This document shows positions 31,113-46,099 of a stretch of 64,000 nucleotides of DNA, in pieces. Made by a program: the position numbers and the translations under genes. The DNA comes from Thermophilibacter immobilis (GTDB lineage Bacteria; Actinomycetota; Coriobacteriia; Coriobacteriales; Atopobiaceae), in the NCBI RefSeq assembly GCF_015277515.1, contig NZ_CP063767.1:248001-312000 (forward strand). The letters are read 5' to 3'. Position 1 is the stretch's first letter. The number at the start of each line of letters is the position of its first letter. Below the pieces are notes generated by a model. It was not told the DNA's origin, did no database searches, and saw nothing but the letters and a program-made list of their open reading frames with translations.

Positions 31113-31187
31113 TCTTCTCGTCCCGCGTCCCGGCTCCGCCCCGCCTCCCGCCCCGGCTCACCTCCCGGCTCCGTCCCGCCTCTCTGT

Positions 31188-31253
31188 TCATAGTGCACCG
31201 AGGACCAGATTCGCCCTCGGTTCGTCCTCGTTTGCGTCGTCCGTGCACTATGA
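31188..31253 (+). repeat. 66 bp inverted-terminus element, copy 1
   Basis: It begins TCATAGTGCAC and ends GTGCACTATGA, which are exact inverted copies. Its length is 66 bp, as in all five copies. The right half (TCGTCC.CGTTTGCGT) aligns without gaps to copies 2 and 3, while the left interior has diverged. It lies between the dehydratase activase-like gene and the glycyl radical enzyme gene. Confidence 0.85.
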
Positions 31254-31368
31254 GTCGTGGGAGGGACGAGGGCGCCCTGTGATTCGAGGTCGTTTTTGTG
31301 GGGAATCGCCCGTGTCCCCGATAACGTCCGGCCGTGGCACTCCGGCGCCCCATGGGCGCCTCATGGGC

Positions 31369-31434
31369 TCATAGTGCGCATGCGACCGAACTAGGCTGAG
31401 AATCGTCCCTGTTCGCGTTATCCGTGCACTATGA
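31369..31434 (+). repeat. 66 bp inverted-terminus element, copy 2
   Basis: The termini are TCATAGTGCGC and GTGCACTATGA. By eye it differs from copy 3, 5.9 kb away, at 4 of 66 positions. A separate palindrome, GGCGCCC-cat-GGGCGCC (31344-31360), lies just before it. Copies 1 and 2 are in the same orientation, 115 bp apart. Confidence 0.85.
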
Positions 31435-31540
31435 GCGGGGTTGGCAGGCGGTAGGGGGCAGGTGGCAGGCGGCAGAGTCTCTGGCAGCCTCGCTCGGATG
31501 GGTCGATCTGAGCGCGAACCCGAAGGCTTACGTGAATTAA

Positions 31541-33938: not shown

Positions 33939-34835
33939 ATGGCCCTGGTGTTCGACATACAGCGCTTCTGCGTGAATGACGGGCCGGGCATCAGGAGCAC
34001 GGTCTACCTCAAGGGCTGCCCGCTCCGCTGTCCCTGGTGCCACAACCCGGAGTCGAACCTCGCGCGCCCGCAGCTATCCTACGTTGCCAGAAGGTGCACG
34101 GGGTGTCGGCGCTGCGGCGAGGTGTGCCCCCATGGGGTGCACTCCTTCGAGGGTGGCGTCCACCAGGTGGATTTCGAGCGCTGCGTCGCCTGCGGAAGAT
34201 GCGTCGAGGCATGCCCCGCCGACGCCCTGGGCATCTATGGCAGGGAAGAGGACGTCGAGAAGATCATTGGCCAGCTTGCTGCCGACGAGGACTACTACGA
34301 CACCTCGGGTGGGGGAGTGACCATCTCGGGTGGCGAGGCGATGAGCCGCTACGAGGATGCACTCGCCATCGCTCGTGCCGTCAAGGAGCGGGGCTGGCAC
34401 CTCTGCCTCGAGACGAGCGGCTATGGGTCTAGGGAGCGCTTCAGGGAGATCGCGAAGTACGTCGACGTCTTCCTCTTCGACTACAAGGTGACTGGCGAGG
34501 ATGCGTACCGCAGGGTCATCGGAATGTCGGAGGAGATGGTCCTGGGAAACCTTGCCCTGCTGGAGGAGCTGGGCGCCACCGTCATCCTCCGCTGCCCCAT
34601 CATTCCCGGCTATTCCGACGACGTGGCCCACTTCCGCAGGATTGCCGAGCTCAGCCGTCTCTCCTGCGTCGACCACGTGGAGCTTCTCCCCTATCACGAC
34701 CTGGGGATCGGGAAGGCGAGGAGCATCGGATCGGCGCGGTGCCTCGAAGGAGTGACCGTTCCCGCCGCATCTGACGTCCGCTCGTGGATTGCCGCAGTCG
34801 AGTCCTTTGGTGGGGCGGACATTCGCGAGTCGTAG
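33939..34835 (+). CDS. Glycyl-radical enzyme activating protein (radical SAM)
   Basis: The 298-residue radical SAM protein installs the glycyl radical on its partner. The cluster motif is CPLRCPWCHNPE (C-x3-C-x2-C) near residue 27. An inserted ferredoxin-like segment follows with two further Cys groups, CTGCRRCGEVCPHG and CVACGRCVEACPAD, as in activases of the eliminase class. The SAM-binding text is TISGGEAMSRYEDALA, where most relatives have GGEP. It starts 40 bp after the enzyme gene; ATG 33939 was taken because the conserved N-terminus (FDIQRFCVNDGPGIRSTVYLKGC) begins there, and upstream in-frame starts overlap the enzyme gene. Confidence 0.92.
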   Translation: MALVFDIQRFCVNDGPGIRSTVYLKGCPLRCPWCHNPESNLARPQLSYVARRCTGCRRCGEVCPHGVHSFEGGVHQVDFERCVACGRCVEACPADALGIYGREEDVEKIIGQLAADEDYYDTSGGGVTISGGEAMSRYEDALAIARAVKERGWHLCLETSGYGSRERFREIAKYVDVFLFDYKVTGEDAYRRVIGMSEEMVLGNLALLEELGATVILRCPIIPGYSDDVAHFRRIAELSRLSCVDHVELLPYHDLGIGKARSIGSARCLEGVTVPAASDVRSWIAAVESFGGADIRES

Positions 34836-34860
34836 TCGCCTGTCTTGTGTTACTACAAAT

Positions 34861-34882
34861 TTGTAAAGACTGGTTTTTACAA
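34861..34882 (+). promoter_or_regulatory. GntR operator candidate before gntR
   Basis: TTGTAAA (34861-34867) and TTTACAA (34876-34882) are inverted around 8 bp. The same TTGTAAA core occurs at 31541 and, inverted, at 35696-35703. This supports autoregulation by the downstream GntR protein. Confidence 0.6.
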
Positions 34883-34955
34883 CTGGGCTTTGCCTCGGCA
34901 TGCGGCTTGACGTTCCCGAGTGATGCTTCGTGGGTACGGCGATGGGATGGGTGAC

Positions 34956-35645
34956 ATGAGCAAGCACGAGGACGTGTATCGAGACCTGAGGAAGAAGATC
35001 CTCAACGGCAGCTACGCCACCCGGAGCGCACTCGAGAGCGAGGAGGTCCTCAGCAAGCGCTACGGCGTGTCGCGTCCGACCTTGCACAAGGCCCTCGACG
35101 CCCTCAAGCGAGACGGTCTGGTGCACAGTCGGCAGGGTGCCGGCATCTTCGTGAATCCCTCCGAGTTCTTCATCCAGAACAACCTCACCACCCTCTCGGA
35201 GCGCTACGCGGGAGAGGGCGTCGTCATCACCAGCGAGGTGCTGCTCCTCGAGACGGTGCCTTCTCGCGACATGGGCGAGATGTTCCAGATCGATCCCAGC
35301 GACCCCCTGATTCACTACCTTCGCCTCCGCCGCGTGGACGGTCACCCGAAGTCCCTCGAGGAGACCTACATGCCGAGCTACCTCTTCCCGAGCTTTGAAG
35401 AGGAGTGTCTGCAGGGGTCGATGATCCACTACATCGAGGACGTCTGCGGATACTCGATCAGCCACGTCAACAAGAGGATCAAGCCCGTCATCGCCGAGGG
35501 GGAGACGGCATCCCGCCTCGAGGTGCCCGAAGGCACGGCGATGCTCCAGGTCAATCACTCCGTCTACCTGCTCCGAAGCGTCATGGTGCAGTACACCGTC
35601 GAGACGACGCTCGACTCGAGCATCTCGGTCACCTCCGTCCGCTAG
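34956..35645 (+). CDS. GntR-family regulator with UTRA domain
   Basis: A regulator of about 229 residues of the HutC/UTRA subgroup. The winged helix reads YRDLRKKILNGSYATRSALESEEVLSKRYGVSRPTLHKALDALKRDGLVHSRQGAGIFV, followed by the UTRA effector domain with IHYLRLRRVDGHPKSLEETYMPSYLFP and, near the end, LQVNHSVYLLRSVMVQYTVETT. UTRA domains bind phosphorylated sugars or similar small ligands, in keeping with a PTS product as inducer. The start is uncertain: ATGs at 34923, 34947 and 34956 share the frame and none has a strong ribosome site; 34956 was taken because the domain begins just after it. Its operator motif lies before three transcription units of this cluster. Confidence 0.88.
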   Translation: MSKHEDVYRDLRKKILNGSYATRSALESEEVLSKRYGVSRPTLHKALDALKRDGLVHSRQGAGIFVNPSEFFIQNNLTTLSERYAGEGVVITSEVLLLETVPSRDMGEMFQIDPSDPLIHYLRLRRVDGHPKSLEETYMPSYLFPSFEEECLQGSMIHYIEDVCGYSISHVNKRIKPVIAEGETASRLEVPEGTAMLQVNHSVYLLRSVMVQYTVETTLDSSISVTSVR

Positions 35646-35676
35646 GACTCCGGAGGGCGCGGGCCGCCAGGGTGAA

Positions 35677-35725
35677 AATACTAAGCAAAATTAGTATTTA
35701 CAAGTTAGTAAGCATTAGCTACTAT
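35677..35725 (+). promoter_or_regulatory. Promoter and operators of the PTS permease gene
   Basis: TTTACA (35697-35702) and TACTAT (35720-35725) are 17 bp apart and form a good promoter. AATACTAA (35677-35684) and TTAGTATT (35691-35698) form a perfect inverted repeat over its upstream edge. TATTTACAA (35695-35703) is the inverse of the TTGTAAATA core seen at 31541. Confidence 0.65.
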
Positions 35726-35791
35726 CTCAATTAGCCGGACAATAGGCAGATTGATCTGTTCCGTGGCGTAACTGTCGAGAATGGAGTGGGA

Positions 35792-37222
35792 ATGAGCAAG
35801 AAGGTAGTTGCCATCACGTCGTGCATCACGGGGATCGCGCATACGTACATGTGCGCTAAGGCCCTCGAGGATGCGGCAGGCGAGCTCGGTTACGAGATTC
35901 ACGTCGAGAAGCAAGGAGCCTCGGGTACGGAGGACGAGCTCACCTTCGAGCAGATCGCCCAAGCCGACGCCGTCGTCTTCGCCTGCGACAAGGCCGTCGA
36001 CGAGTCCCGCTTCGCGGGCAAGGACGTGCTCAAGGTCACCTGCGACGCGGGCATCAAGGATCCCAGGGGTGCAATCGAGCGGGCCATGGCGAGGAAGGGC
36101 ACCGAGCGGATAAGCGCCGGGGATGTCACCGCCAGGCGCTTCTCCGACGAGGGCAGGTCCAATGCCGCCTCTGGCGCGGCGACCATCTTCAAGCACGTGA
36201 TGAACGGCGTCTCGCACATGCTTCCCATCGTCGTTGCCGGCGGCATCCTCACCGCTCTGCGCTACGCGTTCGGATCCACCATCACGGACGGCAACATCGT
36301 CTGGGCCTTCGAGGCCGAGGGCTCCCTGCCGTACTACATCAGCCAGATTGGTGCGACCTATGGTCTCGGCATGATGATCGCCGTCCTCTCCGCCTTCATC
36401 GCCGACTCCATCGCCGATCGTCCGGGCTTCGTTCCCGGCCTCATCGGCGGCCTCATCGCCGGCAGCATCCAGGCCGGCTTCATCGGCGGCATCCTCGCCG
36501 GTCTTCTCGCCGGATACGTCACCCTCTACCTCAACAAGTGGATTCAGCTCCCGCCGGCGTTCGCGGGGCTCAAGCCGATCCTCATCCTGCCGCTGCTGTC
36601 CACGCTCGTCGTCGGGTTGGTCATGTACTACGTGGTCGGCACTCCCGTCGCGCTTCTCACCGCCGCCATCACCAGCCTGCTCTCGTCCCTCAACGGTGCG
36701 GGGAACGTCGTGCTCGGCATCATGTGCGGCCTGCTCTACTTCGACCTCGGCGGGGCCGTCTCGAAGGTTCTGTACGCGTTCGCCATCGGCATGCTCGACA
36801 CGGGTGTCTATGGGCCCATGGCCGCCGTCATGCTCTGCGGTATGGTCCCCCCGATCGGCATGGCCCTTGCCACCCTCATCAAGCGTGACCTCTGGAACGA
36901 CGACGAGCGCGACTCCGGCAAGGCCGCCGCTCTGCTCGGCTGCTCCTACATCACCGAGGGCGCAATCCCCTTTGCCACGAGCTATCCGCTGCAGGTCCTT
37001 CCGGGCTGCATGATCGGTGGCGCCGTCGCAGCCGTGATGTCCCTGCTCATGGGCATCGAGTGCACCGCTCCCCACGGCGGGATGTTCCTACTCCTTATTC
37101 CCAACGTCATCAACAACATCGGCGGATTCCTCCTGTGCCTGGCCGTCGGGTCGATCGTCTGCGCCCTCATCGTTGACGGCCTCATGACGATGCGGCGCAA
37201 CAAGGACAAGGTCGCTGCCTAG
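35792..37222 (+). CDS. PTS fructose-family EIIBC permease
   Basis: The 476-residue protein joins a fructose-type EIIB domain (VVAITSCITGIAHTYMCAKALE, phospho-acceptor Cys near residue 11) to a membrane EIIC domain starting near residue 135 (MNGVSHMLPIVVAGGILTALRYAFG), with the conserved GLIGGLIAGSIQAGFIGGILAG and the C-terminal ECTAPHGGMFLLLIPN. It phosphorylates its substrate during uptake. There is no EIIA domain, and none is encoded nearby, so a general EIIA from elsewhere must supply phosphate. ATG 35792 follows GGAG at good distance; a GTG two codons upstream is also possible. It is co-regulated with the glycyl radical enzyme by the shared operator motif, which suggests that its product is the enzyme's substrate. 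Confidence 0.9.
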   Translation: MSKKVVAITSCITGIAHTYMCAKALEDAAGELGYEIHVEKQGASGTEDELTFEQIAQADAVVFACDKAVDESRFAGKDVLKVTCDAGIKDPRGAIERAMARKGTERISAGDVTARRFSDEGRSNAASGAATIFKHVMNGVSHMLPIVVAGGILTALRYAFGSTITDGNIVWAFEAEGSLPYYISQIGATYGLGMMIAVLSAFIADSIADRPGFVPGLIGGLIAGSIQAGFIGGILAGLLAGYVTLYLNKWIQLPPAFAGLKPILILPLLSTLVVGLVMYYVVGTPVALLTAAITSLLSSLNGAGNVVLGIMCGLLYFDLGGAVSKVLYAFAIGMLDTGVYGPMAAVMLCGMVPPIGMALATLIKRDLWNDDERDSGKAAALLGCSYITEGAIPFATSYPLQVLPGCMIGGAVAAVMSLLMGIECTAPHGGMFLLLIPNVINNIGGFLLCLAVGSIVCALIVDGLMTMRRNKDKVAA

Positions 37223-37249
37223 GGTTCGTCACTCGCACGACTCGTCTGA

Positions 37250-37279
37250 GGGAGCCCGGGAGCAATCCTGGGCTCTCCC
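37250..37279 (+). terminator. Terminator-like hairpin after the PTS gene
   Basis: GGGAGCCCGGG (37250-37260) pairs with CCTGGGCTCTCCC (37267-37279), allowing bulges, around AGCAAT. No T-tract follows. It lies 62 bp upstream of the 66 bp element copy 3. Confidence 0.5.
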
Positions 37280-37340
37280 CGTCTGTCCGAGGTCGGGGGC
37301 CCCTGTGGCATGTCCGCTGCTCCCATCCTGCTCTTCGGGC

Positions 37341-37406
37341 TCATAGTGCGCATGCGACCGAACTAGGCTGGGAATCGTCCCCGTTCGCGTCATCCGTGCA
37401 CTGTGA
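37341..37406 (+). repeat. 66 bp inverted-terminus element, copy 3
   Basis: The termini are TCATAGTGCGC and GTGCACTGTGA. It is nearly identical to copy 2 (62 of 66 by eye), which implies recent duplication or gene conversion. It lies 202 bp beyond the 3' end of the AbiEi/PD-(D/E)XK gene. No gene was found in the rest of 37223-37608. Confidence 0.85.
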
Positions 37407-37608
37407 GCGGAATCGGCAGGCGGCGGGTGTGGTTCCTGGTGCGATGGCCGACATCGTTGTCCACATCCTTGGGAAAGGAGGTGGAATCGACATCGTGTGG
37501 CCTCCACACGTCGTTCTTGGCGCAGCGATGACGGCGATGACAAGGTCAGGGCCTAGGCCCCAGCCCCCTGGCAACCCTTGGAGTGGATGTCGGGCCTGTG
37601 CGCCGCCT

Positions 37609-38712
37609 TCAGGCGACAAGGACCCGGAGGTCGTGGACGGCTACCCGCAGCGCCCAGTCGCCAAGGCGGTATCGGGCGTAGAATTTTCCTCTTGACCTAC
37701 GGTGACGCCGGATCGGACGAGCGAGGAGCCCAGGTTCGTGCCGCCGTTCCAGCCCAACGCGCGGCACGCCGAACGCCGTGAGGATCCGTGCGAGCCTCCA
37801 TCGATGGATGACGTCGGCAAACGAGAAGCGCACGACGGCATCGACCACGCTGGTGAGCCGGGATTCGCGCAGGCGCTCGTCGGAGAGGACGTCAATCGCG
37901 TCCCTGCCGGCAGTCATGCTCGGGTTGCGATACTTCTCGCGCCCATCGAGCTCGCCCGCAATCAGCCGCCCTGACTCGGTGCGCCACATGAAGTCGACGC
38001 GGAACCGACTGCTCCGCTCAACCGGGTCAGCCACCTCCACCTGCAGCTCCGGCGTCTGAAATCCCAGCTCGAGCATGACGGCGCGGGCGATTGACTCCCC
38101 GCCATTCTCGCTTCTGCCGTCTGCTGCCTCGAGGGTGCGCAGGGCATGGCGCCTGCCTGGGCGATGACGGGTGAGCGCGTCCACTTGGACAACGAGCTCT
38201 CCTGGGGTGAAGCCAAGCCTGAGCACTGAGTCTGCAAGTGCCAGCCCCTCCTCGAAGTCGAGGTAGCGCAGGCAGTCGGCGACGGTCTGCCAGAACAATG
38301 TCACCCTGATGCCACGCACCTCGCCGCCTCGGTCGCCCTCGACCGAAACCCGGGCATAGCGTCCGTGGCTACGGGTCCGATGTCGACTCTCGACGGCGAC
38401 GCAGATGCTCTGGAGCCGCCGGTGCGACACCTGCAGGCCGTAGACGAGGGCGGCGCTCGTGAGGCCGAAGGTCCAGCGTGGATGCATGGTCGCGGTCGCC
38501 CTCAGCTCCTGACCTGCCCGCTCGATGGGGGTGAGGCTCGCCCAGTGGGCGGGTCGTGCGAAGGCGCCGGGAACGGGCTGGATGACGCCGCCCCTCCGCT
38601 GCAGCGCACGCAGCCGGCGCCGATCGAGGCGGTCGCGAGGGACGAGGAGGCGGTGCTCGCACTCGGCTTCGTCGAGGTCTGCCGCCAGCGCCTGCTGGAC
38701 ATTCCTGCTCAT
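37609..38712 (-). CDS. AbiEi-like/PD-(D/E)XK (DUF559-like) protein A
   Basis: The 367-residue protein is not a standard annotated enzyme. The N-terminal half has the look of an AbiEi-type winged helix followed by its partner domain: LVPRDRLDRRRLRALQRRGGVIQPVPGAFARP and the conserved WTFGLTSAALVYGL. The C-terminal half fits a Vsr/DUF559-like PD-(D/E)XK nuclease: ADGRSENGGESIARAVMLELGF (Glu206), FRVDFMW (Asp240), and IAGELDGREKY (Glu254, Asp256). The product of 41988-42995 has the same layout and shares the string ADGRSENGGES. The start at 38712 has GGAGG, and the start region itself contains GTGCGCTATGA, nearly the terminus of the 66 bp elements that flank the gene on both sides. DNA binding at those termini, by the winged helix, is a hypothesis; so is nuclease activity. 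Confidence 0.72.
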   Translation of the reverse strand: MSRNVQQALAADLDEAECEHRLLVPRDRLDRRRLRALQRRGGVIQPVPGAFARPAHWASLTPIERAGQELRATATMHPRWTFGLTSAALVYGLQVSHRRLQSICVAVESRHRTRSHGRYARVSVEGDRGGEVRGIRVTLFWQTVADCLRYLDFEEGLALADSVLRLGFTPGELVVQVDALTRHRPGRRHALRTLEAADGRSENGGESIARAVMLELGFQTPELQVEVADPVERSSRFRVDFMWRTESGRLIAGELDGREKYRNPSMTAGRDAIDVLSDERLRESRLTSVVDAVVRFSFADVIHRWRLARILTAFGVPRVGLERRHEPGLLARPIRRHRRSRGKFYARYRLGDWALRVAVHDLRVLVA

Positions 38713-38858
38713 AGCGCACCTCCATGGAAGGCAGTCGCGAGGCTGCCTGGAATGGTATGGGTGGGGGTCGTCCGAGTGTCGCACCCGGGAGGCAGTGCCG
38801 GCGTTTCGATTCGAGGGGCGGTCGTCTCTCTCGGCGAGGGGGCATTCCCTATTCCGCC

Positions 38859-38924
38859 TCATAGTGCACATGTGCCCGGACGAGGGCTGGGCTGTGACCG
38901 GTTCGAGTCCTAGATGCACTATCA
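38859..38924 (+). repeat. 66 bp inverted-terminus element, copy 4
   Basis: The termini are TCATAGTGCAC and ATGCACTATCA. The interior is diverged but aligns without gaps (GGTTCGAGT where copies 2 and 3 have GTTCGCGT). It lies 146 bp upstream of protein A's start codon. Confidence 0.8.
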
Positions 38925-39008
38925 GCGGAAGAGAGAGAGGGGGGCATCACCTGCGTCCGTCGGTGCGGTTGGGCGAGGAGAGAGCCATGACCCGTACCAA
39001 AATAGGCG

Positions 39009-39074
39009 TCACAGTGCACAAAAGACCCGAACGGCCATCCGCAACGTTACATTTTGGTTCCGCATGCACTATGA
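39009..39074 (+). repeat. 66 bp inverted-terminus element, copy 5
   Basis: The termini are TCACAGTGCAC and ATGCACTATGA. It is the most diverged interior of the five, yet the length is still 66 bp. It ends 78 bp before the amino-acid binding-protein gene and may contain or flank that gene's promoter. No gene lies in 38713-39152. Confidence 0.8.
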
Positions 39075-39152
39075 GTCGAGAAGAACGGCCCGCAGGCACT
39101 TTAGTGTGATAAAGTAACGCAGTCGGACGTCACCGCAATGAAGGGACCTACC

Positions 39153-40019
39153 ATGAACAGCAGCCTCGGTCGTCGACAGTTCCTGAACATCGCCGGCGGC
39201 GCACTCTCCGCCTCCGCATTCCTCGCACTCGCGGGCTGTGGCTCGAGTGGAGCCGGCAGCTCGACCTCGTCTGCCGCCCCAGCATCGTCGGCGACCTTCG
39301 CCGGACCCTTCGTCCTCGGCTTCGACCAGGAGTTTCCGCCGTACGGCTACATCGGCGATGACGGCAACCCGACCGGCTTCGACATCGACCTTGCCACCGC
39401 CGTCTGCGAGATGGAGGGCTGGGAGTTCAAGCCGACCCCCATCAACTGGGATTCCAAGGACGCGATGCTCAACTCCGGCCAGATCACCTGCATCTGGAAC
39501 GGCCTCACCATCGAGGGCCGCGAGAAGGACTACGCCTTCACCGACGCCTACATGGAGAACCGCCAGGTCGTCGTCGTGCGCTCCGACTCCGGTATCACGA
39601 GCCTCGCCGACCTCGCCGGCAAGAACGTCGTGACCCAGACCGACTCGGCGGCGTACTACCTGCTCGTCGACGGCGGGGCGCAGGCCGACCTCGGTGCGAG
39701 CTTCGCCAAGCTCGACACGATCGGCGACTACAACACCGGCTTCATGATGCTTGGCCAAGGCAGCTATGATGCCATCGCCGTCGACTACCCGGTTGCGGTC
39801 TTCAACATCGGTGACAAGACCGACGAGTATGCGATGCTCGACGAGTCACTCAACTCCGAGCACTTCGGTATCGGCTTCGCGCTCGGCAGCGAGGCGCTTG
39901 CCGCCAAGGTCGAGGCCGATCTCCAGAAGCTCGACGCCGAGGGCAAGGTCGAGGAGATCTGCAACAAGTACGCCGGCCAGGGCGTCTCCTACACCGCCTG
40001 GTGCCTGCCCAAGGCGTAG
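39153..40019 (+). CDS. Amino-acid ABC transporter substrate-binding lipoprotein
   Basis: The 288-residue protein has a twin-arginine-like signal (GRRQFLNIAGG) and a lipobox (LALAGC), then a Ser/Ala-rich linker and a family 3 solute-binding domain: FVLGFDQEFPPYGYIGDDGNPTGFDIDLATAV, with INWDSKDAMLNSGQITCIWNGLTIEGRE and the C-terminal EEICNKYAGQGVSYTAWCL. Family 3 proteins bind polar or charged amino acids such as cystine, glutamine or arginine. ATG 39153 has AAGGGA upstream. It is the first gene of a binding protein, permease, ATPase operon. Confidence 0.9.
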   Translation: MNSSLGRRQFLNIAGGALSASAFLALAGCGSSGAGSSTSSAAPASSATFAGPFVLGFDQEFPPYGYIGDDGNPTGFDIDLATAVCEMEGWEFKPTPINWDSKDAMLNSGQITCIWNGLTIEGREKDYAFTDAYMENRQVVVVRSDSGITSLADLAGKNVVTQTDSAAYYLLVDGGAQADLGASFAKLDTIGDYNTGFMMLGQGSYDAIAVDYPVAVFNIGDKTDEYAMLDESLNSEHFGIGFALGSEALAAKVEADLQKLDAEGKVEEICNKYAGQGVSYTAWCLPKA

Positions 40020-40093
40020 TCCCCAGCCAACGAACTTCTCGCCGGCGTCCGTGTGAGCGTCGGATTCTGCCGCAAGCTTCCTGGAAGGTGCCC

Positions 40094-40747
40094 GTGGACG
40101 TCTCCACCATGCTCTCAATGCTCGTCTCGGGGTACGGGACCTCGATCGTCATCTTTGCGCTCACCCTGCTGGGGGCGGTCCCCCTGGGCATCCTGGTCGC
40201 GCTCGGACGACTCTCGCGCTTCCGACCCCTCGCCATCCTCATGGGCCTGTACATCTCGGTCATGCGCGGCACCCCGCTCATGCTGCAGATGTTCGCCGTG
40301 TTCTTCCTGCCATATTACGGCTTCGGCCTGCAGACCGGCCCGGACTTCATGTTCACGGCGTGCATCGTCGCCTTCGTGGTCAACTATGCCGCCTACTTCG
40401 CAGAGATCTACCGGTCTGGCATCCAGTCCATCCCGCGCGGTCAGTACGAGGCGGCCGAGGTGCTCGGCTACTCGCGTGGGCAGACCTTCGTGCGCATCGT
40501 GCTGCCGCAGATGGTGAAGAGAATCCTGCCTGCCATGGGCAACGAGGTCGTGACGCTGGTCAAGGACACCTCCCTCGCGTTCTCGATCGGGGTCTCCGAG
40601 ATGTTCACCGTCGGTCGTGCGCTCGTGGCGAGCCAGCGCAGCATGCTGCCCTTCGCCATTGCCGCGGGCATCTACTGGCTTACCTGCCTGGCCATCGAGT
40701 TTATGCTGCGCCGCGCCGAGAAGAGGCTGGACTACTACCATGACTAG
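40094..40747 (+). CDS. Amino-acid ABC transporter permease (HisM type)
   Basis: The roughly 217-residue membrane protein has about five hydrophobic segments and the family's coupling loop (EIYRSGIQSIPRGQYEAAEVLGYSRGQTF) together with ISVMRGTPLMLQMF. A GTG at 40094 with GGAAGG ten bases upstream is the best start; earlier in-frame codons overlap the binding-protein gene and encode an Arg-rich tail. It probably works as a homodimer, since only one permease gene is present. Its last codons overlap the ATPase start. Confidence 0.9.
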   Translation: MDVSTMLSMLVSGYGTSIVIFALTLLGAVPLGILVALGRLSRFRPLAILMGLYISVMRGTPLMLQMFAVFFLPYYGFGLQTGPDFMFTACIVAFVVNYAAYFAEIYRSGIQSIPRGQYEAAEVLGYSRGQTFVRIVLPQMVKRILPAMGNEVVTLVKDTSLAFSIGVSEMFTVGRALVASQRSMLPFAIAAGIYWLTCLAIEFMLRRAEKRLDYYHD

Positions 40748-41519
40748 TGCGAGTGCCGATAGGCCCGGGGCGGCCGTCCGCGTGTCCGGTGCCAGGAAGT
40801 CGTTCGGTGGACGAGAGGTGCTGGGCGGGGTCGACTTCTCGATCGGTCGCGGCGAGGTCGTCTCGCTCATCGGCCCGTCGGGGGCCGGAAAGTCCACGAT
40901 GCTGCGCTGCCTCACCCTTCTCGATACCCTCGACCAGGGCAGCATCAGCTACGGCGACCTCGTGGTCTGCTCCGGCGATGACGGGGCGCGCTACGACAGG
41001 GCCGCGATGCGGGCTGCACGCATGCGTTTTGGCCTCGTCTTCCAGGACTACAACCTCTTCCCGCACCGCACGGTGCTGCAGAACGTCATGGACGCGCCGG
41101 TCGTGGTCCAGGGGAGGGATCGCATGGAGGTCGAATCCCAGGCACGCGAGCTTATCGCAACGCTCGACCTCGCGGAACATGCCGACAAGGTCCCCTGCCA
41201 GCTCTCGGGCGGGCAGCAGCAGCGCGTTGCCATCGCGCGGGCGCTGTGCATGAACCCGGATGTCATGTACTTCGACGAGGCAACGTCCGCGCTTGACCCC
41301 AGGCTGACCAAGGACATGCACGACCTCATTCGCCAGCTGGCAGACAAGGGCATGGCGGTCGGGATCGTCACGCATGAGATGGGCTTCGCGCAGACGGTGT
41401 CGGACCGCGTCTGCCTGCTGTTCGACGGCCAGATCGTCGAGGATGGCAGTCCGGAGCAGCTGCTCGAGCACCCGCGCGACGAGCGCTCGCGCATCTTCCT
41501 CAGCCTCTCGGCCGACTAG
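40740..41519 (+). CDS. Amino-acid ABC transporter ATP-binding protein (GlnQ type)
   Basis: The 259-residue ATPase has Walker A GPSGAGKST near residue 43, Q-loop LVFQDYNLFPHRTVLQNV, signature LSGGQQQRVAIARAL, Walker B VMYFDEATSALDP and H-loop IVTHEMGFAQTVSDRV. All catalytic motifs are intact. ATG 40740 overlaps the permease stop by eight bases, which indicates coupled translation. The downstream side is not followed by a T-rich terminator; instead the 84 bp elements begin 33 bp later. Confidence 0.94.
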   Translation: MTSASADRPGAAVRVSGARKSFGGREVLGGVDFSIGRGEVVSLIGPSGAGKSTMLRCLTLLDTLDQGSISYGDLVVCSGDDGARYDRAAMRAARMRFGLVFQDYNLFPHRTVLQNVMDAPVVVQGRDRMEVESQARELIATLDLAEHADKVPCQLSGGQQQRVAIARALCMNPDVMYFDEATSALDPRLTKDMHDLIRQLADKGMAVGIVTHEMGFAQTVSDRVCLLFDGQIVEDGSPEQLLEHPRDERSRIFLSLSAD

Positions 41520-41551
41520 GGGGGCTGCGGCATCCCGTTGGGGCTGCTGCG

Positions 41552-41635
41552 TGACAGCTTGGACAACCGCGAGCGTAACCTCTTGCGCCAACTGGGCATT
41601 CGCATACGTTTCGAATCCTAACGTCCAACCTGGCA
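41552..41635 (+). repeat. 84 bp inverted-terminus element, copy A
   Basis: It begins TGACAGCTTGGACA and ends CGTCCAACCTGGCA; the termini are near-exact inverted copies. By eye it matches copy C at about 66 of 84 positions with no gaps. It lies just after the amino-acid ATPase gene. Confidence 0.82.
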
Positions 41636-41662
41636 TCCGAGCCCCCCTGTTGCTCCCAGAGT

Positions 41663-41746
41663 TGCCAGCTTGGACGGATAGGAGCATAACCTATCGCGTG
41701 ACCTGCGCCTTTGCGAAGGTTTCACTTCCGAGTGTCCAACCTGGCA
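41663..41746 (+). repeat. 84 bp inverted-terminus element, copy B
   Basis: It begins TGCCAGCTTGGAC and ends GTCCAACCTGGCA, inverted at 12 of 13 positions. The length is 84 bp. The interior is more diverged than in A and C but keeps AGCATAACC and CTGnGCnTTTGC. It lies 27 bp after copy A in the same orientation. No gene was found between 41747 and 41987. Confidence 0.82.
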
Positions 41747-41987
41747 GATGCGATGCCGCGCATTCACCTGGTAGGCAAACCCAGCGCGAGCCAGAGTGGC
41801 AATGGTCCTCGATCGTTTCGATTGGGGGTCTAGATATCACGGCATCGCGAGGAGCTGTCGGACAAGCCACGCCGACCGGCAGGTTATCTGACACTGAAGG
41901 CGCCGACCGTGGCAGAAACGTCTCCTCGCCGTGGCAGTGACAGGCGAATAGTGGTGGCACCTTCGATGCGAACGGTTTGGGGCTACC

Positions 41988-42995
41988 ATGACGCGACCAA
42001 GCAGGAAGTTGGACAGGCTGTATTACGCGGCAGAGGCACTCGAGACCTGCGTTGCGCCTCGCTCCGCCGCCAGCCGGCAGCTGCTCCGCCGCCATCTCGA
42101 AGCCGACGGCCTCATCTCGCCAGCCACGAACCTGTACCTGCGACGGGTGACTTGGGAGAGGCTCAACCCCAACCAACGTGCGCTCCATCTGATGCGCGGC
42201 CTTTCTCGCCAACACGGGACCTGGGTCTTCTGCGGCGTGTCTGCGGCCCTTGTCCATGGGCTGGACGTGTCCTTCGACCTGTCGGGCCAAGTTCATGTGG
42301 CAGTGGCGAGAAGTGCCTTGGATCGAAACCGCAGTCTCGTCGTCTTTGACTACGTGGGGTCGACGGGCACTTGCGAGTATGAGGTCGTGGACGGAATCCG
42401 GGTGTCCCCGCTGGAGCGTTGCGTCTACGAGTGCCTGTCGTCGCTGGGATTCAGGCGGGGGCTGCCCATCGCGGATTCCTACCTGCGGATGACCGGTGGC
42501 TGCGCAGACGGGCTCGTCGATGCCATCGCGGTGCGCCACCGTGGGTGCAAGGGCGTTCGTCAGGCTCGCATCACGGCAGCCTTTGCCGACGGGCGCTCCG
42601 AGAACGGGGGAGAGTCGTTCGCGCGTGCCGCGATGATCGAACTCGGGTTCGCGGTGCCCGACCTACAGGTGAGCTTCGCCGATCCGATGGAGCGCGGGCG
42701 GTCGATTCGCCCCGACTTCCTTTGGCAGACGCCTGACGGCCGAACGGTTGCAGGCGAGCTCGACGGATTCGACAAGTATGCCGACGAGTCGATGAACGGT
42801 GGGCGTGGTGCGACCGACGTCCTCATCGACCAGGCGATTCGTGATTCTCGGCTTGCGCTTCTCGGCATAACGCCGATGCACTTCCGCTTTGTCGACGTGT
42901 GCGACGACCGGGGCTTCTCCCGCCTGTTGGAAAGCTATGGCATCCCGAGGCATCCTCGTGGGTGGGTGACGAAGGCAAGGGAGCGTCGACGGTAG
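41988..42995 (+). CDS. AbiEi-like/PD-(D/E)XK (DUF559-like) protein B
   Basis: The 335-residue paralogue of the product of 37609-38712 has the same two-part layout. The N-terminal half has APRSAASRQLLRRHLEADGLI (winged-helix-like), ATNLYLRRVTWERLNPNQRALHLMRGL and WVFCGVSAALVHGLDV. The C-terminal half has ADGRSENGGESFARAAMIELGF (Glu209), IRPDFLWQT (Asp243) and VAGELDGFDKY (Glu257, Asp259), the pattern expected of a PD-(D/E)XK nuclease core. It has no gene partner on its own strand. Instead it is bracketed by 84 bp elements: A and B upstream and C eight bases after the stop. GTTGGACA at 42008-42015, just inside the gene, equals the inner part of the element terminus. Function is unknown; sequence-specific DNA cleavage or self-regulation at these sites is a hypothesis. 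Confidence 0.72.
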   Translation: MTRPSRKLDRLYYAAEALETCVAPRSAASRQLLRRHLEADGLISPATNLYLRRVTWERLNPNQRALHLMRGLSRQHGTWVFCGVSAALVHGLDVSFDLSGQVHVAVARSALDRNRSLVVFDYVGSTGTCEYEVVDGIRVSPLERCVYECLSSLGFRRGLPIADSYLRMTGGCADGLVDAIAVRHRGCKGVRQARITAAFADGRSENGGESFARAAMIELGFAVPDLQVSFADPMERGRSIRPDFLWQTPDGRTVAGELDGFDKYADESMNGGRGATDVLIDQAIRDSRLALLGITPMHFRFVDVCDDRGFSRLLESYGIPRHPRGWVTKARERRR

Positions 42996-43003
42996 GCGGG
43001 ATA

Positions 43004-43087
43004 TGCCGGATTGGACAGACGCGAGCATAACCATCTGTGCCAACTGGGCGTTTGCATTCGTTTCGAGTCAGGATGTCCAACCTGGCA
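43004..43087 (+). repeat. 84 bp inverted-terminus element, copy C
   Basis: It begins TGCCGGATTGGACA and ends TGTCCAACCTGGCA. It has the same orientation and length as copies A and B, and starts eight bases after the stop codon of protein B. Confidence 0.82.
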
Positions 43088-43202
43088 GAACGGGGCGCAC
43101 CCATCGCCGAACACGCGTGCACGCATGCATGCCATGCGCTAGGCTGGTGGCCGTGAGCCCGAGGCTCGGGCTCGGCACCGAACCAGACGAAAGGAACGCC
43201 AC

Positions 43203-44489
43203 ATGGGCGAGAACTCTCAGCTCTCAGACGTCGTCGAGCGCTTCATGCGTTACGTGCGGGTGGACTCCCAGTCCGATCCGAACAACGAGGATCAGACGCC
43301 GTCCACTCCCCAACAGCACGAGATGGCCAGCATGCTGGGCGAGGAGCTGCGAACCCTAGGCTGCACGGACGTCCGGGTCGACGAGCACGCCTACGTCACG
43401 GGCAGCTTCGCGGCATCGGCAGGTGCGGAGGACCGACCGGCGCTCATGCTGTGCTCACACATCGACAGCTCCTTTGACGCACCCGCGTCGGGCGTCCGCC
43501 CGCACATCGTCCACTACGAGGGAGGTGACCTCGTCCATGGCCTCGTCGACGGCGAGCCGGTGGTCACCACGCTCGAGCAGGTCCCCGACCTCGCGGACTT
43601 CGTCGGCCAGGACATCGTCTGCTCCGACGGCACGACGCTCCTCTCGGCAGACGACAAGGCGGGCGTCGCCGAGATCTGCGCCCTTCTGGCCCGCCTTGTC
43701 GCCAATCCCGCGCTGCCGCATCCCACGCTCAAGGTTGCCTTTGTCCCGGACGAGGAGATTGGTCACGGAGCGAGCCTTTTGGACCTGGGCGCCCTGGGCG
43801 CGCGCTGGGGCTACACCGTGGACGGCGAGGCCCTGGGGGAGTTCAACTACGAGTGCTTCTCGGCCAGCGAGGCCACCGTTCGCGTGCGTGGCGTGATGGT
43901 CCACCCCGGCAGCGCCAAGAACGTCATGGTCAACGCCATCACGGTGGCCTCGGAGTTCGAGCGGATGATTCCCGCCTCCGAGCGCCCCGAGCATGCCGAG
44001 GGTCGCGAGGGCTTCTATCATCCTACGGGCATCTCGGGCAGCGCCTCTGACGTTACGCTGACCTATATCCTGCGCGACTTTGACGCCGCGGACTTCGCAC
44101 GCCGCGAGAAGACCATGCGCGACGTGGCTGCCTTCCTGAACGACCGCTACGGCGCGGATACCGTCACCGTGAGCATCAAGGAGCAGTATCGCAACATGGC
44201 CGAGAAGTTCGGCCCCAATGACCAGCAGCTCATCGACTACGCGCTCGAGGCCAACCGCGAGGTGGGCATAGAGCCCGTGGCGGTGCCGGCCCGCGGGGGC
44301 ACCGACGGAGCCCAGCTCACGTTTCGCGGCCTGCCGTGTCCCAACATAGCCACGGGAGGCTATAACGCGCACTCGATCAGGGAGTTCGTCCCCGTGCGCA
44401 GCCTCGAGCTCACGGTCGACCTGCTCGAGCGCCTCGTGGCCAAGTTCGCCGGGGTGCCAGCATCGGCGCCGGCGTCGACGAAGAGTTAG
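43203..44489 (+). CDS. pepT: Peptidase T (tripeptide aminopeptidase)
   Basis: PepT is a cytosolic zinc aminopeptidase of the M20B family that removes the N-terminal residue from tripeptides. The 428-residue length is close to the family norm of about 410. Metal and catalytic motifs are present: LCSHIDSS (usually HxDT), SADDKAGVAEI with the second metal ligand and catalytic site, VPDEEIGHGA with the catalytic Glu pair, YTVDGEALGE, and the C-terminal GGYNAHSIREFVPVRS. The middle has PARGGTDGAQLTFRGLPCPNI. Asp-Ser in place of Asp-Thr in the first motif is conservative. It starts after a GAAAGGAACGCC ribosome site, and a small membrane protein gene follows after 9 bp. Confidence 0.94.
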   Translation: MGENSQLSDVVERFMRYVRVDSQSDPNNEDQTPSTPQQHEMASMLGEELRTLGCTDVRVDEHAYVTGSFAASAGAEDRPALMLCSHIDSSFDAPASGVRPHIVHYEGGDLVHGLVDGEPVVTTLEQVPDLADFVGQDIVCSDGTTLLSADDKAGVAEICALLARLVANPALPHPTLKVAFVPDEEIGHGASLLDLGALGARWGYTVDGEALGEFNYECFSASEATVRVRGVMVHPGSAKNVMVNAITVASEFERMIPASERPEHAEGREGFYHPTGISGSASDVTLTYILRDFDAADFARREKTMRDVAAFLNDRYGADTVTVSIKEQYRNMAEKFGPNDQQLIDYALEANREVGIEPVAVPARGGTDGAQLTFRGLPCPNIATGGYNAHSIREFVPVRSLELTVDLLERLVAKFAGVPASAPASTKS

Positions 44490-44498
44490 GGGGCGTTC

Positions 44499-45035
44499 GT
44501 GGGGCTCATTCTTCTCGCTGTCTCCGCGGTGATGGTGCCGCTCGTTGCCCTCGTGCTGGAGCACGTGGGCAACGTCCGCATCTCCGAGCGCCACCACAGC
44601 CACCATGACACTTACGTCGTTCCGGTCGCCTTCACGAGAGCGCTCGTTCTTGCGATGGTGTTCGCGGGCGTCTTTGGGCTCGCCCTGGCTGGGCTCTGCG
44701 CTCTGCGCGTCTTTCTCGTTGACCCGGTTTGGGTCCTCGTCTTTTTCGACGCGTTCGTGGTGAGCGGCTTCGTCATGTGGTGGTGCCTTGGGCGCTACAA
44801 GGTCTCAACATTCGAGGAGTGCCTGGCCGTGACGCCGCTTCTTGGCCCGGACGTCTGGGTGCGCTATGAGGAAATCGAGCGTCTGGAATGGATTGGGTTT
44901 CGCAAGGGGTCGGGCTATCGCAACCTGGGTATCTGGGCGGGCGGCCGACGCGTTGCCACGCTGAGCGGCATCGTGGACGTGGAGCAGATCCTCATGCGCA
45001 TCGACCGCTTCGACGTGCTGCCGCACCCCCTCTAG
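44499..45035 (+). CDS. Small membrane protein with PH-like C-terminal part, function unknown
   Basis: The 178-residue protein starts with GTG 44499, preceded by AGGGGGCG. Three hydrophobic segments are visible: LILLAVSAVMVPLVALVL, ALVLAMVFAGVFGLALAGLCAL and VWVLVFFDAFVVSGFVMWWCL. A cytosolic tail follows with YKVSTFEECLAVTPLLGPDVWVRYEEIERLEWIGF, which resembles the PH-like tails of small bacterial membrane proteins of unknown function. It is probably co-transcribed with pepT. Confidence 0.7.
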   Translation: MGLILLAVSAVMVPLVALVLEHVGNVRISERHHSHHDTYVVPVAFTRALVLAMVFAGVFGLALAGLCALRVFLVDPVWVLVFFDAFVVSGFVMWWCLGRYKVSTFEECLAVTPLLGPDVWVRYEEIERLEWIGFRKGSGYRNLGIWAGGRRVATLSGIVDVEQILMRIDRFDVLPHPL

Positions 45036-45174
45036 AAAGGCTTGCCGTGATCAGAGGTCAACATGCTATGGAGTGGGGGGCAAGCGCGGACGGGGGTATG
45101 GCTGACGCGCGCTTCGAAATCGTACGGGGGACAAGGGCGGGCGAGATGCCCGCGTTTCTGAAGGGAGAGGGCAG

Positions 45175-45972
45175 ATGATCAGGCTCATCGCGTCGGACAT
45201 GGACGGAACGCTGCTCGACGAGAACTCCGAGGTCCCCGCCGAGACCTTCGGGCTCATCCACGAGCTGCGTCAGAGGGGCGTCATCTTCGTGGCAAGCTCG
45301 GGGCGGCGCTATGACACCCTTCGATGGTTCTTCGAGCCGGTAGCTGACGAGATGGACTATGTGGCCTCGTTGGGCACACAGGTCCACGCGGACGGGCAGC
45401 TTCTGGACCGCGAGGTCTTCTCGACGCTTGCCGTGCGACGCCTCTTTGAGACCTGCCAGCTCTTTGACTGTTTGCATCTGGCTCTCTATGATGCCACGCA
45501 CACCTATCTTCTCAACGACCAGAGTGCTTACCTGCGCGAGCTCGACAAGGACCTGCCTGATGCGCAAAGTGTCTACGACCCGCCCTCGCCGGACGTGAGC
45601 ATCATCAAGGCTGCCGTCTGTTGCGACCGACCCGATCAGATCATGGACATGGCCTACGTGATGGAACGCGAGCTTTCCCAACTGTTCACGTTTCTTCCCA
45701 GTGGCTCGAGCTGGATTGACGTCACGCCGCGCCACGTGAGCAAGGCGACGGGACTGGAGCAGATCCTGAACTACTACGGCATCAAGCGAGAAGAAACCCT
45801 GGCCTTCGGGGATTCCATGAATGACTATTCCATGCTGCGTTACGTGGGCCATCCCTACGTGATGGAGAACGCGCGCTATGCCGTGAAGCAGATCGCACAG
45901 CAAGTCATCGGGAGCAACCGGGAGCACGCGGTGCAAAAGATCATGCGAAGACTGCTCGAGGAGCTCTCGTAG
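45175..45972 (+). CDS. HAD-family phosphatase, Cof type
   Basis: The 265-residue hydrolase has the four HAD motifs: DMDGTLLDENSEV (nucleophile Asp8), VASSGRRYDTL, the Lys in SKATGLEQIL and FGDSMNDYSML with the metal-binding Asps. The cap is of the Cof/IIB type. Such enzymes dephosphorylate sugar phosphates, FMN or pyridoxal phosphate; no specific substrate is evident. It starts after an AGGGAGAGGGCAG ribosome site. It stands alone before the tRNA gene. Confidence 0.92.
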   Translation: MIRLIASDMDGTLLDENSEVPAETFGLIHELRQRGVIFVASSGRRYDTLRWFFEPVADEMDYVASLGTQVHADGQLLDREVFSTLAVRRLFETCQLFDCLHLALYDATHTYLLNDQSAYLRELDKDLPDAQSVYDPPSPDVSIIKAAVCCDRPDQIMDMAYVMERELSQLFTFLPSGSSWIDVTPRHVSKATGLEQILNYYGIKREETLAFGDSMNDYSMLRYVGHPYVMENARYAVKQIAQQVIGSNREHAVQKIMRRLLEELS

Positions 45973-46099
45973 AGGTGCGGTAGGCGTAGCTCGGGGCTCG
46001 AGACCAGCCAAGAAGAAAGTTGTGGAGACTGTTCCACAGGCTTGATTTCAGACTGACTCCTTGGCATACTATTCAACTGCGCACACGCGCGCCCAATAT

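What the first reader, a model, noticed from the sequence alone, without database searches (positions are those of the whole stretch)
37341..43087. Two paralogous AbiEi/PD-(D/E)XK proteins, each embedded in its own family of fixed-length repeats
Seen: proteins A (37609-38712) and B (41988-42995) share one architecture and the string ADGRSENGGES. A is flanked by 66 bp elements (copies 3, 4, 5) and B by 84 bp elements (A, B, C). The two repeat families are unrelated in sequence, but both have inverted termini of 11-13 bp, an exact invariant length and a drifting interior. Known: REP elements and RAYT transposases show that a protein can co-evolve with its own palindromic repeats; the AbiEi winged helix binds inverted repeats at its own promoter. 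Inference: each protein recognises its own repeat termini, either as an autoregulated repressor-nuclease or as a mobilising enzyme. I know of no described system of this form.
Basis: partly seen in the sequence, partly recalled or inferred. Interest (0 to 1): 0.85.

Follow-up and report, generated by a model that had tools for sequence, protein, structure and literature searches.

The report
Nuclease genes with private palindrome families
Across actinobacteria, a family of DNA-binding nuclease genes is bracketed by short palindromic DNA elements whose sequence is private to each gene, often changes completely between related species, and in some species has spread around the genome, suggesting a repeat-spreading system built on an enzyme not previously linked to such repeats.

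Summary
A and B belong to a family with an AbiEi-like half plus a Vsr/EDxHD-homing-endonuclease-like half. Genes sit between copies of their own imperfect palindrome: by a strict test 64 of 92 homologue loci, against 3 of 516 control ORFs; distant actinobacterial homologues 17 of 20, against 0 of 176. At one chromosomal site in related species the gene persists but the palindrome is often unrelated, while copies within a locus stay alike. Stem mismatches show no strand bias, so the constraint acts on DNA; 58 of 83 short spacings are exactly 61-62 bp whatever the sequence. Two of four families tested are dispersed genome-wide, in genomes whose gene carries them: 20 arm hits here; 14, 16 and 36 in three relatives; a fourth relative with 18 hits has no gene. 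A's and B's elements stay local. Best reading: a RAYT/REPIN-like system, in which a protein spreads and homogenises its own palindromes, built on an unrelated nuclease. Binding is inferred from the AbiEi precedent; nuclease-driven spread is inference.

The parts
37609..38712 (-). protein A: AbiEi-like half plus Vsr-like nuclease half
   Evidence: PADLOC AbiEi and fold matches are for the family
41988..42995 (+). protein B: same architecture; AF2 model pLDDT 88.8
31187..31254 (.). A-family 68-bp palindromic element, copy 1 (6 kb from gene A)
31368..31435 (.). A-family element, copy 2 (6 kb from gene A; close to copy 3 in sequence, by eye)
37340..37407 (.). A-family element, copy 3, downstream of gene A
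38858..38925 (.). A-family element, copy 4, upstream of gene A
39008..39075 (.). A-family element, copy 5, upstream of gene A, in part inverted relative to copy 3
   Evidence: (pair I2)
38708..38719 (-). single A-type half-site (GTGCGCTATGAG on the minus strand) overlapping the start codon of A
41552..41635 (.). B-family 84-bp element, upstream copy 1
41663..41746 (.). B-family element, upstream copy 2 (111 bp start to start from copy 1)
43004..43087 (.). B-family element, downstream copy

Best explanation
A family of single-gene modules that work like RAYT/REPIN pairs but with an unrelated enzyme. SHOWN: an AbiEi-like/Vsr-like fusion gene is usually accompanied by palindromes (median span 56 bp) that bracket it, are private to it, are constrained as DNA, keep a 61-62 bp register when tandem in the genus, evolve in concert within a locus, are often replaced between species at the same site, and in two of four families tested are dispersed through the genome as singlets and as doublets 62 bp apart. 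INFERRED from the AbiEi precedent: the winged-helix half binds each palindrome as two half-sites, and two palindromes about six helical turns apart are bound together. INFERRED: the nuclease half nicks or cuts at or near bound elements, and repair from sister copies homogenises the family, multiplies it locally and occasionally seeds new intergenic sites; element and DNA-binding half then drift together to new specificities.
For: Bracketing: strict test (900 bp each side) 64 of 92 loci against 3 of 516 control ORFs; looser caller 79 of 92 on both sides, of which I judged six unconvincing (no control run for that caller); with 1000 bp each side, other families of the order 10 of 20 against 0 of 127, distant phylum homologues 17 of 20 against 0 of 176. 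Architecture: AbiEi 6y8q Z 9.4 over residues 3-201; homing endonuclease I-Bth0305I Z 8.5 and Vsr Z 7.3 over 204-320. Concerted evolution: element similarity exceeds the 99% line of 400 random non-orthologous pairs within 69 of 76 loci, against 56 of 139 orthologous-site pairs. Fast change: gene median identity 65% against 84% for neighbours, lower in 170 of 185 pairs. DNA-level constraint: 255 G-T against 236 A-C stem mismatches. Dispersal tracks the gene; doublets of exactly 62 bp at 15 of 17 sites in G010. The xpt 3' spacer often carries the genome's own element type (group pattern read by eye). Present/absent module: of 15 loci with xpt next to the usual following gene and no nuclease gene, 12 have a 110-173 bp spacer. 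Precedent: S. agalactiae AbiEi binds an operator of 11-bp arms with N27 between, i.e. 49 bp (PMC3985639, passages).
Against: No binding, cutting or movement was observed. A's and B's elements are not dispersed; D's were not tested. G008 has a dispersed family and no homologue. By the looser caller 13 of 92 loci lack a two-sided family and 5 have none, and 10 of 20 loci from other families of the order fail the strict test. Co-variation is not confined to the winged helix. The own family ranked first in only 3 of 13 xpt spacers. No target-site duplication was established. The 61-62 bp register is not evident in distant homologues. A classical RAYT elsewhere in these genomes was not searched for.
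Confidence: 0.55

Rival explanations
1. Operator or sponge only: the palindromes are binding sites through which an AbiEi-like repressor controls its own locus, by looping between upstream and downstream sites; copies elsewhere are regulatory targets that arose by ordinary duplication, and the nuclease acts on something else.
For: AbiEi binds a palindrome of the same geometry at its own promoter; elements lie on both sides of the gene; the 61-62 bp register suits helical phasing; A has a half-site at its start codon.
Against: No half-site enrichment at -200..+30; genome-wide dispersal, largely as doublets in G010; elements beyond a host gene; sequence replacement between species at the same site.
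Confidence: 0.2
2. Anti-phage or anti-plasmid nuclease in which self elements act as decoys or activators and arms-race pressure drives the fast change of specificity.
For: One PADLOC AbiEi model matches 15 of 18 members at E <= 0.1, best 3e-9 (B itself only 0.027); the gene evolves faster than its neighbours; several members per genome.
Against: No AbiEii partner beside A or B, whose neighbours are PTS, ABC transporter and M20 peptidase genes; dispersal of elements is unexplained.
Confidence: 0.13
3. An ordinary insertion sequence with palindromic ends: gene plus bracketing elements transpose together, and solo elements are remnants or MITEs.
For: Whole module absent from empty sites; a family gene lies within 1.5 kb of this M20 peptidase gene in G000 but in none of the 29 other fetched loci; a solo hairpin remains at an empty site in L254 and L259 (by eye).
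Against: The gene keeps its place across many species while the ends change sequence; genes at different sites are about 40% identical at the median, not recent duplicates; in L117, L136, L137 and L155 the left elements lie beyond xpt; with B as query no match in 50,697 phage records and one in 72,556 plasmid records.
Confidence: 0.1

Closest known systems
RAYT (TnpA-REP) and REP/REPIN elements
   Same: Palindromes near a dedicated gene, extragenic dispersed copies, doublets as the apparent unit (REPIN abstract, PMC3116915). That RAYTs are mostly vertically inherited with lineage-specific REPs is recalled.
   Different: The enzyme is AbiEi-like plus Vsr-like, with no Pfam match to a transposase in A, B or 18 members; palindromes are longer with a 61-62 bp register; low copy number; some families stay local. 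The GTAG/CGTC REP survey (PMC3733652) has no occurrence of six actinobacterial names searched in its text.
AbiE type IV toxin-antitoxin (AbiEi antitoxin)
   Same: AbiEi-like fold; the AbiEi operator is a 49-bp imperfect palindrome with 11-bp perfect arms (passages of PMC3985639).
   Different: A nuclease-like domain is fused on; no AbiEii gene beside A or B; palindromes bracket the gene and may be dispersed, rather than one operator in the promoter.
Vsr and EDxHD homing endonucleases (I-Bth0305I)
   Same: Fold of residues 204-320.
   Different: The DNA-binding half is AbiEi-like; multiple palindromes rather than one homing site. No search for a split target gene was made.
MITEs and insertion sequences
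   Same: Short elements with inverted termini; module present or absent at a site.
   Different: Bracketing elements are each complete palindromes and turn over in sequence while the gene stays put.

Membership tests
RAYT/REPIN | HUH (Y1) transposase domain | tested here: not met
   No Y1 family among Pfam matches for A and B (E <= 1) or 18 family members (E <= 0.1); best fold matches are AbiEi and Vsr/EDxHD.
RAYT/REPIN | gene flanked by its cognate palindromes | tested here: met
   64 of 92 strict, 79 of 92 looser (six of these unconvincing).
RAYT/REPIN | cognate palindromes dispersed through the genome | tested here: inconclusive
   Met for the C family in G000 (20 arm hits, five of them at gene C) and the CCCTCCCAAACC family in G002, G009, G010 (14, 16, 36 arm hits, own locus included); not met for A and B. 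Four families were tested.
RAYT/REPIN | doublets as the unit | tested here: inconclusive
   62/63-bp doublets at 15 of 17 sites in G010, but 4 of 8 in G008, 3 of 10 in G009 and 2 of 6 in G002, judged by exact 12-mer arms only.
RAYT/REPIN | GTAG or CGTC tag beside the palindrome | not tested
   Tag known from the title of PMC3733652 and recall; not scanned for.
AbiE toxin-antitoxin | AbiEi fold with winged helix | tested here: met
   6y8q Z 9.4, 180 residues aligned, rmsd 6.2; a PADLOC AbiEi model matches 15 of 18 members at E <= 0.1, best E 3e-9.
AbiE toxin-antitoxin | AbiEii nucleotidyltransferase toxin in the same operon | tested here: not met
   Neighbours of A and B: PTS, SBP_bac_3, BPD_transp_1, ABC_tran, Peptidase_M20. 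Neighbours of other homologues were not profiled, apart from one (no Pfam match) beside C.
AbiE toxin-antitoxin | palindromic operator in the gene's own promoter | tested here: inconclusive
   No half-site enrichment at -200..+30 over 76 loci; promoters were not mapped.
PD-(D/E)XK, Vsr-like nucleases | fold and conserved acidic residues | tested here: met
   I-Bth0305I Z 8.5 (rmsd 2.6, 94 aligned) and Vsr Z 7.3 (Z 7-8 can be background); E209, D243, E257, D259 invariant in 18 members. Their catalytic role is my inference.
PD-(D/E)XK, Vsr-like nucleases | catalytic activity | not testable with these tools
   Needs the purified protein.
Insertion sequence | target-site duplication and recent identical copies | tested here: inconclusive
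   Genes at different sites about 40% identical at the median; no clean junction aligned at the xpt site.

The most novel reading that the evidence does not exclude
A phylum-wide class of selfish or domesticated palindrome families, each written and rewritten by its own AbiEi-Vsr nuclease: bound elements are nicked, repair copies arm sequences within and between elements, and this drives concerted evolution, 62-bp doublet formation and genome-wide seeding. It would be an independent invention of the RAYT/REPIN logic with PD-(D/E)XK chemistry, in which target and DNA-binding domain change specificity together within a genus.
Probability: 0.42. Interest if true: 0.93.

Novelty: categorically new. 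Interest (0 to 1): 0.86.

Why it matters
It ties a large group of actinobacterial proteins, for which the members scanned have no meaningful Pfam or NCBIfam match and which PADLOC catches only as AbiEi, to a visible DNA partner, so that each gene predicts its own binding site. It could explain species-specific palindromes in actinobacterial intergenic DNA, and the many orthologous sites with replaced specificity form a natural experiment on how a DNA-binding protein and its targets change together.

Tried and rejected
Chance or GC-rich background: rejected by control ORFs (3 of 516; two of the three overlap one another; ORFs of all six frames were taken, so they are not independent) and by 0 of 127 and 0 of 176 in the homologues' own stretches.

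RNA hairpins or known RNA families as the main constraint: no Rfam family at gathering score in window 34000-46000; stem mismatches show no strand bias.

Promoter operator as the general rule: no half-site enrichment near starts. Winged-helix-specific co-variation: partial correlations are positive for every protein region tested, so it cannot be singled out.

Empty-site test for B: the fetched M20 peptidase loci have only 1.5 kb of flank, and the ABC ATPase query was out of frame (found), so that query is uninformative.

Sequence search against solved structures gave only weak flagellin matches (best E 0.16). Foldseek gave nothing at E <= 0.001; the fold statements rest on VIA-align, where Z 7-8 can be background, so the Vsr match is weaker than the AbiEi match.

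Literature: ten searches of open-access PMC; among the listed titles and abstract openings I saw no description of this pairing. Several searches had more papers than were listed. Beyond listings I saw one abstract with outline, passages of one paper and an empty word search of another. Subscription papers and preprints were not covered.

Rows chosen or dropped: 102 loci reduced to 92 by identical gene segments. For some searches, 5 loci without a family and 11 that I hand-listed as unconvincing were left out, leaving 76; six of those 11 are among the 79 two-sided loci. Of the matches listed, I fetched 20 of 24 from other families of the order and 20 of 25 from the rest of the phylum. My caller also missed real elements, for example in L134 and L135, seen by eye.
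Full report
OBSERVATION. A and B are real paralogues (43% over 309 residues), and each is flanked by its own fixed-length inverted-terminus repeats at the stated places. Corrections: A's element is 68 bp, and two more copies lie at 31187-31254 and 31368-31435, 6 kb away. In the whole 2.16-Mb genome the exact B terminus occurs three times and the exact A terminus four times, all at these places. The genome has two further paralogues, C and D; both have their own, different palindrome families.

THE PROTEIN. A and B have no Pfam or NCBIfam match at E <= 1. Of 18 members scanned, 15 match one PADLOC AbiEi model at E <= 0.1 (best 3e-9; B itself only 0.027 to another); Pfam gives only stray single-member matches. 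An AlphaFold2 model of B (pLDDT 88.8) aligns by VIA-align to the AbiEi antitoxin 6y8q over residues 3-201 (Z 9.4, rmsd 6.2) and to the catalytic domain of homing endonuclease I-Bth0305I (Z 8.5) and Vsr (Z 7.3) over 204-320; Foldseek alone was not significant. E209, D243, E257, D259 and K263 are invariant in the 18. So: an AbiEi-like DNA-binding half fused to a Vsr-like nuclease half. Activity is untested.

HOW GENERAL. 29 of 31 genomes of the genus have at least one match, up to five per genome; 74 of 121 sampled genomes of the family and 26 of 296 of the phylum at E <= 1e-20. From 102 loci, 92 had distinct genes. A strict test asks for a palindrome within 900 bp upstream and one of identical span and similar arms within 900 bp downstream. 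64 of 92 pass, against 3 of 516 control ORFs from genomes of the same genus. A looser caller finds a family on both sides in 79 of 92, six of them unconvincing to me, and on any side in 87 (no control run). With 1000-bp flanks, other families of the order give 10 of 20 against 0 of 127 controls, and distant phylum homologues 17 of 20 against 0 of 176. Named loci include Olsenella, Thermophilibacter, Tractidigestivibacter, Bifidobacterium and Acidipropionibacterium.

ANATOMY OF THE ELEMENT. In 76 usable families the span has median 56 bp (38-112), with a stem of about 17 bp and a variable loop; two copies per locus is commonest (39 of 76), up to nine. Of 83 neighbouring spacings under 260 bp, 58 are exactly 61 or 62 bp, although the sequences differ; in the 40 loci from other families and the rest of the phylum this register is hardly seen. 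Stem mismatches of G-T type (255) and A-C type (236) are balanced, so selection is on DNA, not on an RNA hairpin. Upstream and downstream copies may have inverted loops, as in L105, L126, L144 and L159 (by eye).

EVOLUTION. Sixteen groups of loci share both neighbours. Within such a group the gene is orthologous but the palindromes are often unrelated. At the C site alone there are GGGGC-ATGCGGC, CCCTCCCAAACC, GCGTGACTT, TACGCG and other types. Element similarity exceeds the 99% line of 400 random non-orthologous pairs within 69 of 76 loci, but in only 56 of 139 orthologous-site pairs. With a stricter arm score, 28 of 139 orthologous pairs and 1 of 2711 other pairs are alike. Orthologous genes are less conserved than their neighbours (median 65% against 84%, lower in 170 of 185 pairs), the nuclease half most conserved. 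Element similarity follows protein similarity in every region tested, so the winged helix is not singled out.

MODULE AND DISPERSAL. Of 29 xpt loci, 15 have xpt next to the usual following gene without the nuclease gene; 12 of these have spacers of 110-173 bp and three carry other inserts. Two empty sites retain a lone hairpin resembling neighbours' families (L254, L259; by eye). In L117, L136, L137 and L155 the left elements lie beyond xpt. Counts that follow are hits of an arm pattern, up to two per palindrome. The C core GGGGCNNATGCGGC has 20 hits in this genome (control 1): five at gene C, four in an array at 218.7 kb with 72-73 bp register, and 11 single sites; the other 30 genus genomes have 0-4 hits, like their controls of 0-6. 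CCCTCCCAAACC has 14, 16 and 36 hits in G002, G009 and G010, whose C-site genes carry that family, 18 in G008, which has no homologue (genome about 94% complete), and 0-1 in the other 27, with controls 0-1. Copies form doublets at 62 or 63 bp at 15 of 17 sites in G010, 4 of 8 in G008, 3 of 10 in G009 and 2 of 6 in G002, gene loci included. The spacer after xpt carries TACGCG-type doublets in G003, G004, G024, G028 and G030, whose own genes have that type, CCCTCCC-type in G009 and G008, and L155-type in G022 and G023. The strict rank of the own family was first in only three of the 13 spacers of genomes with a C gene, because close relatives share types, some spacers are empty or hold something else, and some reference stretches run into conserved flanks; the group pattern was read by eye.

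MECHANISM. AbiEi of S. agalactiae binds, by gel shift, a 49-bp palindrome with 11-bp perfect arms (PMC3985639, passages). The palindromes here have similar geometry, so binding by the AbiEi-like half is the simplest reading. Concerted change, doublets in fixed register and dispersal tracking the gene are what a nuclease acting at its own sites, with copy-from-sister repair, would give. That step is inference. It resembles RAYT/REPIN (abstract of PMC3116915), but the enzyme fails the defining test of a RAYT. Ten searches of open-access papers showed no such pairing in their listings (calls under Tried and rejected).

VERDICT. Observation confirmed and generalised; interpretation partly supported; no known family that I tested accommodates it. 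I rate it categorically new because neither the enzyme nor the elements belong to a described repeat-enzyme pair, although the logic is that of RAYT/REPIN.

Noticed in passing
L235, L237, L250, L252, L259 (xpt 3' spacer): Palindromes of 119-131 bp with 12-21 bp arms occupy the spacer after xpt in G002, G029, G014, G027 and G026 and have no strong match among the 76 element families (best scores 11-15.5); possibly another element class.
   Followed up: partly
genus intergenic regions, e.g. L013, L109, L132, L155: The word GGCGAGAAGAACG (TTCTCGCC) and close variants recur inside element loops and in intergenic DNA outside elements (by eye).
   Followed up: no
window 38708-38719: A single A-type half-site overlaps the start codon of gene A; no such enrichment over 76 loci.
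   Followed up: yes
L012:5250-6218 (gene D); L053, L129, L140: Family members with an in-frame stop that still keep bracketing palindromes.
   Followed up: no
spacing lists: Besides 61-62 bp, spacings of 72-73, 82-83 and 91-92 bp occur (few cases), about one helical turn apart, hinting at a same-face requirement.
   Followed up: no
L252 (G027), between xpt and the next gene: A lone long hairpin within a 1.1-kb spacer, without a nuclease gene.
   Followed up: no
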